Assembly (NCBI GenBank): GCA_030037895.1
Contig: JASHPW010000064.1
Location: forward strand, 1 to 64,000
Origin: Xanthobacteraceae bacterium
GTDB lineage: Bacteria; Pseudomonadota; Alphaproteobacteria; Rhizobiales; Xanthobacteraceae
Direction of reading: 5' to 3'
DNA: 64,000 nucleotides
This document shows positions 51,470 to 52,393 of this stretch, one piece after another. The notes under the pieces were generated by a model. That model was given only the letters and a program-made list of their open reading frames with translations, was not told the origin of the DNA and made no database searches. The translations under genes were made by a program, and so were the position numbers. Position 1 is the first letter of the stretch; each line of letters begins with the position of its first letter.

Positions 51470-52393
51470 TCACATTCCCAGCGCTTTACGGACCGCTTTG
51501 GGCCAGTCCGCAAGCTCGATGCCGTGCGTAGCGAACAGCGCCAACGCCAGCCGATCGATGCCGAAGGCGACACAGCCGGTATGCGCCACCTCGCCGGCCG
51601 CGCCGCGCAGGTTCCACGCCGCACCGAAATGGTCGCGGTGGCAGTTGAAGCTCATGCACGCGGTGGGCTGTTGCGCGGAGCGCACCGGAACGAGCAGTTC
51701 GAATTTCAATCCTTGCTCGACCTGATTCACGGCCATCAGCTTGCCGCCGCGTCCGAAGAACGGATCGCTCGCCTGATCGATGCGCCAGCTCAAGCCCAAT
51801 TGGCCGGCAAGATCCGGCGCCCGCGCCATCCAGCGCCGGCGGAATTCATCGACCTGCTGCGCGGTGCCGACGCACACATATTCGCGCATGCGGAACGATT
51901 GCAGCCGATCGAGTTCCTTCGACGGCTCGTGCCGGAAGCAGTCGCTGGCGACGTCGAACAACAGGCCCTGCGCCGGCACCTCGCCGCGGCTGGCGACCAG
52001 CGGATAGACCGGATAACAGGCCGCGGGGCTGAGCACGAGATCGGCCGGCGACAGCGCCGGCGTCCAATCTTGCCCGGCCTCGAAACGCTCGACGGCGCCC
52101 CGAATCTCCGTTTCGGCGCCGCTGAGGCAGCACACGCAGCCGAGAAAGTGCGGGAAGCTATTCAGATAACCCGATTTTTCCACTTGGCGGCGGCTCATCA
52201 CCGGCGGGAAACGCAAAACTTCCGTGTCCGGCTCGCGGTGGCGCGAGATGAACGCGGTGAGGCCGGCGACGACGTCTTCGAACGCGGCCGTGCGCGCGTA
52301 GACGCCGTCGATGCCCGAGGGCAAGAGCAGCGCCTCGGCGATCGCATCGAGCGTGCCGACCGACGACTTCGGATTCTTCAGTGCTACGTTCAT
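51470..52393 (-). CDS. Amino acid--[acyl-carrier-protein] ligase (class II aaRS/atypical SerRS homolog)
   Basis: LVLSPAACYPVYP, CFRHEPSKELDRLQSFRMREYVCVGT (motif 2-like), HTGCVAFGIDRLALALF (motif 3); no tRNA-binding domain; Cys126/Glu171/Cys274 spacing matches characterised family. Confidence 0.92.
   Translation of the reverse strand: MNVALKNPKSSVGTLDAIAEALLLPSGIDGVYARTAAFEDVVAGLTAFISRHREPDTEVLRFPPVMSRRQVEKSGYLNSFPHFLGCVCCLSGAETEIRGAVERFEAGQDWTPALSPADLVLSPAACYPVYPLVASRGEVPAQGLLFDVASDCFRHEPSKELDRLQSFRMREYVCVGTAQQVDEFRRRWMARAPDLAGQLGLSWRIDQASDPFFGRGGKLMAVNQVEQGLKFELLVPVRSAQQPTACMSFNCHRDHFGAAWNLRGAAGEVAHTGCVAFGIDRLALALFATHGIELADWPKAVRKALGM

What the first reader, a model, noticed from the sequence alone, without database searches (positions are those of the whole stretch)
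51470..52393. aaRS-derived amino acid:carrier protein ligase with intact Cys/Glu/Cys metal site and no tRNA-binding domain
The 307-aa protein is only a class II catalytic core: RMREYVCVGT (motif 2) and GCVAFGIDRLALALF (motif 3). C126, E171 and C274 are spaced 45 and 103 residues apart. From memory, this equals the spacing of the zinc ligands C131/E176/C279 in the characterised Bradyrhizobium Bll0957 enzyme. A tRNA synthetase fold has been repurposed for thioester formation.
Basis: partly seen in the sequence, partly recalled or inferred. Interest (0 to 1): 0.8.

Follow-up and report, generated by a model that had tools for sequence, protein, structure and literature searches.

The report
Amino acid:carrier-protein ligase, known family
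This gene encodes an enzyme built from the catalytic core of a tRNA synthetase that attaches a small amino acid to a carrier protein instead of to tRNA; the enzyme family has been known since 2010, but the conserved gene neighbourhood here hints at an unstudied pathway that oxidises the loaded amino acid and passes it on.

Summary
On the minus strand, 51470-52393 encodes a 307-aa protein above the NCBIfam cut-off for amino acid--[acyl-carrier-protein] ligase. It aligns almost end to end with the solved enzyme Bll0957 (E 1e-132). C126/E171/C274 map onto C131/E176/C279 and never vary in 87 family members. The tRNA-binding part of the related SerRS is absent.

What is less known is the setting. 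In about 100 neighbourhoods the ligase nearly always sits with one carrier protein and one acyl-CoA-dehydrogenase-fold protein. That protein lacks the catalytic glutamate at both usual positions, which suggests a flavin monooxygenase rather than a dehydrogenase. In the window's type a tandem-GNAT protein is the usual fourth gene (60 loci); in the Agrobacterium type DUF1839 takes that place (15 loci). The two never occur together.

Best explanation: a small amino acid, probably glycine, is loaded on the carrier, oxygenated there and transferred by the GNAT protein to an unknown acceptor. Only loading rests on a characterised homologue. An earlier paper (PMC2922099) already proposed loading, monooxygenation and transfer to surface sugars for the DUF1839 type. 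A second carrier/ligase/reductase set, a FadD and a MetA/sulfhydrylase pair often accompany the window's type.

The parts
51470..52393 (-). amino acid:carrier protein ligase, 307 aa, stand-alone class II synthetase core
   Evidence: NF005479 460 bits over cut-off 357; PDB 3mey/4h2w E 1e-132; only copy in the genome
52016..52018 (-). codon of metal ligand C126 (Bll0957 C131)
51881..51883 (-). codon of metal ligand E171 (Bll0957 E176)
51572..51574 (-). codon of metal ligand C274 (Bll0957 C279)
52433..53686 (-). acyl-CoA-dehydrogenase-fold flavoprotein, 39 bp upstream of the ligase; lacks the catalytic Glu at both known positions (I393, A263), invariant H264
   Evidence: Pfam PF02771/PF00441; adjacent in 78 of 80 loci; column check against ordinary ACADs of the same genome; fold nearest TdsC/DszC, DnmZ, KijD3 and ordinary ACADs
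53915..54205 (+). cognate carrier protein (ACPa), Ser in GLSSLD for phosphopantetheine, divergent from the ACAD-fold gene
   Evidence: best PDB match Aminoacyl carrier protein 1 (4h2s_C) E 3e-13; near the ligase in 73 of 80 loci; NF005480 61 bits, below its cut-off of 72
50552..51433 (+). tandem-GNAT protein, 293 aa, probable acyl/aminoacyl transferase
   Evidence: no family match; AlphaFold pLDDT 91; Foldseek top hits are GNATs; near the ligase in 55 of 80 loci
50231..50476 (-). second carrier protein (ACPb), overlaps the next gene by 20 bp
   Evidence: PF00550; 25 of 80 loci; overlap
48856..50250 (-). AMP-forming acyl ligase, probably loads ACPb
   Evidence: PF00501/PF13193; 27 of 80 loci
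48106..48852 (-). SDR, 3-oxoacyl-ACP reductase-like, probably acts on acyl-ACPb
   Evidence: PF00106; TIGR01830 217 bits, below its cut-off of 298; 21 of 80 loci
45309..47129 (+). FadD-like acyl-CoA synthetase, frequent cluster member
   Evidence: NF006134 758 bits over cut-off; 22 of 80 loci
43775..45079 (-). O-acetylhomoserine sulfhydrylase-like PLP enzyme, frequent cluster member
   Evidence: PF01053; 27 of 80 loci; other, 47-50% identical copies elsewhere in the genome
42713..43753 (-). MetA/HTS-like homoserine O-acyltransferase, frequent cluster member
   Evidence: PF04204; in 27 loci of the neighbourhood set

Best explanation
The 307-aa protein is an amino acid:carrier protein ligase. 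It activates a small amino acid (glycine by homology with Bll0957, possibly alanine) with ATP on a metal-dependent class II core and transfers it to the phosphopantetheine thiol of the carrier protein at 53915-54205. The ACAD-fold flavoprotein encoded just upstream then probably oxygenates the tethered aminoacyl group (most likely on nitrogen), and the tandem-GNAT protein at 50552-51433 probably transfers the modified group to an amine acceptor. Shown by sequence: ligase identity, metal site, carrier family, conserved neighbourhood, missing dehydrogenase base. Inferred: glycine as substrate, pairing with this carrier, oxygenation, transfer, and the acceptor (possibly a surface sugar).
For: NF005479 over cut-off and SerRS models matched only in the C-terminal part; Bll0957 alignment; metal ligands invariant in 87 sequences; carrier best matched by Aminoacyl carrier protein 1 of 4h2s; ACAD-fold gene in 78/80, carrier in 73/80 and GNAT in 55/80 neighbourhoods; bll0958 is annotated acyl-CoA dehydrogenase and listed with bll0957 (PMC10888616). 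ACAD base check: ordinary ACADs of the same genome have Glu in one of two columns, the cluster protein has I393 and A263 with invariant H264; fold hits include TdsC/DszC monooxygenases and DnmZ/KijD3 nitrososynthases; a flavin reductase lies in 3 of the neighbourhoods. GNAT and DUF1839 are never found together (60 and 15 of 101 loci), and PMC2922099 predicted DUF1839 to be the transferase and the flavoprotein a monooxygenase.
Against: No biochemistry here. Foldseek puts ordinary acyl-CoA dehydrogenases at nearly the same score as the monooxygenases, so the fold alone does not decide the chemistry. The flavin reductase is rare (3 of 101 loci). GNAT/DUF1839 exclusivity is confounded with ancestry: the DUF1839 type is one clade. 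About a quarter of type II loci show no GNAT within the stretch held, some only because contigs end.
Confidence: 0.9

Rival explanations
1. The ligase loads the carrier as stated, but the ACAD-fold partner is a true dehydrogenase/oxidase that makes an imino (then glyoxylyl) thioester from glycyl-carrier, as prolyl-carrier dehydrogenases do with proline.
For: ACAD superfamily membership; weak matches to L-prolyl-carrier dehydrogenase models and structures; many ordinary ACADs among the fold hits.
Against: No Glu at either catalytic position, unlike the clear ordinary ACADs of the same genome; a flavin reductase in some clusters suggests external flavin reduction.
Confidence: 0.3
2. A type II, stand-alone nonribosomal peptide-like or acyl-amide pathway that makes a secreted small molecule: aminoacyl-ACPa and an acyl-ACPb (loaded by the AMP ligase, reduced by the SDR) are joined by the GNAT, with a homoserine-derived piece from MetA and the sulfhydrylase-like enzyme.
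For: ACPb/AMP ligase/SDR, FadD, MetA and sulfhydrylase-like genes recur around the ligase in Bradyrhizobium, Xanthobacteraceae, Caulobacter, Bosea and gammaproteobacterial MAGs; a SbmA/BacA-like transporter in close relatives.
Against: These genes are absent from many loci with the core, so they may be a separate, linked function; no condensation domain among the genes scanned.
Confidence: 0.35
3. The pathway decorates a cell-surface sugar with the (modified) amino acid, as Iyer et al. proposed for the DUF1839 type.
For: PMC2922099; polysaccharide genes around DUF1839-type clusters and around a homologue of the GNAT in Shinella plasmids; flippase and polysaccharide deacetylase genes in a few type II loci.
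Against: None of the window genes scanned is a polysaccharide gene; most type II loci show none in the families scanned.
Confidence: 0.35
4. A degenerate or tRNA-charging SerRS paralogue.
For: Homology to archaeal SerRS.
Against: Family cut-off met only by the carrier ligase model; no tRNA-binding part; intact motifs and metal site; carrier gene adjacent.
Confidence: 0.02

Closest known systems
Bll0957, amino acid--[acyl-carrier-protein] ligase 1 of Bradyrhizobium (PDB 3mey, 3mf1, 3mf2, 3pzc, 4h2s-4h2v)
   Same: Same length class, gapless alignment, same metal ligands, motifs and carrier-binding helix region; same neighbours (carrier, ACAD-fold protein, GNAT in Bradyrhizobium loci)
   Different: 63-64% identity; the window adds the ACPb/AMP ligase/SDR, FadD, MetA and sulfhydrylase-like genes; the carrier-binding helix sequence differs
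Agrobacterium/Rhizobium-type ligase with DUF1839 (carrier Atu2571, PDB 2jq4)
   Same: Ligase, ACAD-fold protein and carrier in one operon
   Different: Ligase about 50% identical, a separate clade; DUF1839 and a GH2-like glycosidase instead of the GNAT
Methanogen-type (type 2) seryl-tRNA synthetase, PDB 3w3s, 2cim
   Same: Catalytic core and zinc-site type
   Different: Has an N-terminal tRNA-binding domain and charges tRNA; only its C-terminal part matches here
Class D flavin monooxygenases / nitrososynthases (DszC, TdsC, DnmZ, KijD3), for the partner protein
   Same: ACAD fold; the partner lacks the dehydrogenase glutamate
   Different: About 17-23% identity; substrate here is probably carrier-bound

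Membership tests
amino acid:carrier protein ligase (NF005479) | Score above the curated cut-off | tested here: met
   460.4 bits against 357
amino acid:carrier protein ligase (NF005479) | Cys/Glu/Cys metal site aligned with Bll0957 | tested here: met
   C126/E171/C274, gapless alignment and invariant columns
amino acid:carrier protein ligase (NF005479) | No tRNA-binding domain | tested here: met
   SerRS profile match starts at position 308-310 of 518; protein is 307 aa
amino acid:carrier protein ligase (NF005479) | Cognate carrier protein encoded nearby | tested here: met
   53915-54205, best match Aminoacyl carrier protein 1
amino acid:carrier protein ligase (NF005479) | ATP-dependent loading of Gly/Ala on holo-carrier, no tRNA charging | not testable with these tools
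   Needs purified protein; inferred from homologue
type 2 seryl-tRNA synthetase | Score above the curated cut-off, tRNA-binding domain | tested here: not met
   80 bits against 611 and 68 against 490; N-terminal part missing
acyl-CoA dehydrogenase (partner protein) | Catalytic glutamate at the MCAD or IVD position | tested here: not met
   I393 and A263; Ile at the first position in every sequence of both types
GNAT acyltransferase (50552-51433) | GNAT fold | tested here: met
   AlphaFold pLDDT 91, Foldseek top hits tandem GNATs, TM about 0.4-0.58

The most novel reading that the evidence does not exclude
The window's gene set defines an uncharacterised pathway in which glycyl-carrier made by a synthetase-derived ligase is N-oxygenated by an ACAD-fold monooxygenase and handed by a tandem GNAT, in place of DUF1839, to an acceptor supplied by a second carrier system or a homoserine branch.
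Probability: 0.35. Interest if true: 0.55.

Novelty: new member of a known kind. Interest (0 to 1): 0.3.

Why it matters
The ligase adds one more member to a known family. Its value is that the role of these ligases in the cell is still open, and the neighbourhood comparison offers a testable order of steps: load, oxygenate on the carrier, transfer. If right, aminoacyl-carrier proteins made by synthetase relatives feed an oxygenated amino acid into surface or secreted products in many soil and plant-associated bacteria.

Tried and rejected
The original papers on Bll0957 were not in the library, so published numbering was checked through an orthologue instead. A first alignment used wrong strands for some loci and was discarded (replaced). 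A first check of the ACAD catalytic columns picked antisense reading frames for several controls and was redone with an HMM choosing the frame. Literature searches for a product of this pathway, for the chain 8zt4 and for combined neighbourhood terms found nothing useful. Considered and rejected: tRNA synthetase activity, degenerate gene (intact motifs). The luciferase-like gene at 54323-55402 was not included: it recurs only in 2 of 80 loci. The metallo-hydrolase at 47222-48061 and the ABC transporter at 56453 onward were likewise left out.

Full report
Observation. The ORF at 51470-52393 lies on the minus strand and encodes 307 aa. The two quoted motifs are where a class II core needs them, and C126, E171 and C274 are spaced as stated.

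Identity. The protein scores 460 bits against NCBIfam NF005479, amino acid--[acyl-carrier-protein] ligase (cut-off 357), and only 80 and 68 bits against two serine--tRNA ligase models (cut-offs 611 and 490), matching these from profile position 308-310 on. Its best PDB matches are the Bll0957 entries at E about 1e-132, gapless over query residues 13-307. The three residues are invariant in 87 family members.

How common it is. 70 of 298 genomes sampled from the same order have a match, 64 above the cut-off. A protein search returned 6930 relatives among 8000 scored. The window's genome, a Xanthobacteraceae-like MAG about 90% complete, has one copy. The family is described in reviews that cite the 2010 and 2013 work.

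Neighbourhood. Eighty loci from named genomes were compared with the window by tblastn. The ACAD-fold gene is present in 78, the carrier ACPa in 73 and the 293-aa protein in 55; an AMP ligase in 27, a sulfhydrylase-like gene in 27, a second carrier in 25, FadD in 22 and an SDR in 21. ORF clustering that added twenty further loci gave the same picture and added MetA (27 loci). Genes outside this set, such as the luciferase-like one and the ABC transporter, do not recur.

Two settings. A clade of ligases about 50% identical to the window's (100/100 support) sits with a carrier, the ACAD-fold gene, DUF1839 and a GH2-like gene. The window's type has the 293-aa protein instead. DUF1839 is found in 15 loci, the 293-aa protein in 60, and none has both; the chance figure of 2e-7 ignores ancestry and must not be read as a probability. 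The 293-aa protein has no family match, but its predicted structure (pLDDT 91) matches GNATs, many of them tandem GNATs, and a Shinella homologue is annotated as GNAT beside polysaccharide genes.

The ACAD-fold partner. Aligned with ordinary ACADs of the same genome, which carry the catalytic glutamate in one of two known columns, the cluster protein has isoleucine and alanine there and an invariant histidine at 264. One other ACAD-like protein of the genome (L154) also lacks both. Fold hits are led by TdsC and include DszC, DnmZ and KijD3, but ordinary ACADs score almost as well. A flavin reductase gene lies in three of the neighbourhoods. Together this favours a monooxygenase without proving it.

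Earlier work. Iyer and colleagues (PMC2922099) had already noted, for the Agrobacterium type, the ACP, a redox enzyme, the uncharacterised Atu2574 protein, a glycosidase and lipo/polysaccharide genes, and proposed amino acid transfer to a surface sugar after monooxygenation. My reading extends that scheme to the window's type, with the GNAT in the transferase place; that step is inference. PMC10888616 lists bll0957 and bll0958 (acyl-CoA dehydrogenase) together among proteins raised in a phaR mutant.

Verdict. The finding is correct and the family is known. The 0.9 confidence applies to the enzyme's identity; the oxygenation step I put near 0.5 and GNAT transfer near 0.45, from inference alone.

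Noticed in passing
window 51470-52393, residue 251: Cys where 68 of 75 type II relatives and all 12 type I relatives have Tyr (SFNYH motif); Cys in 6 of 75. Meaning unknown.
   Followed up: no
window 54323-55402: Luciferase-like monooxygenase next to the carrier gene; 85% identical copy in the same place in one MAG (L104), otherwise absent.
   Followed up: partly
L129-L131: A third, distant group of ligase-like proteins (403-443 aa, 150-164 bits, below the family cut-off) with different neighbours.
   Followed up: no
L038, L095, L096, L102, L105, L108: Gammaproteobacterial and other MAG clusters also carry a pyridoxal-dependent decarboxylase.
   Followed up: no
window 55409-56239: D-glutamate cyclase family protein (PF07286), convergent with the luciferase-like gene; a homologue (79% identical) at the edge of L033.
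   Followed up: no
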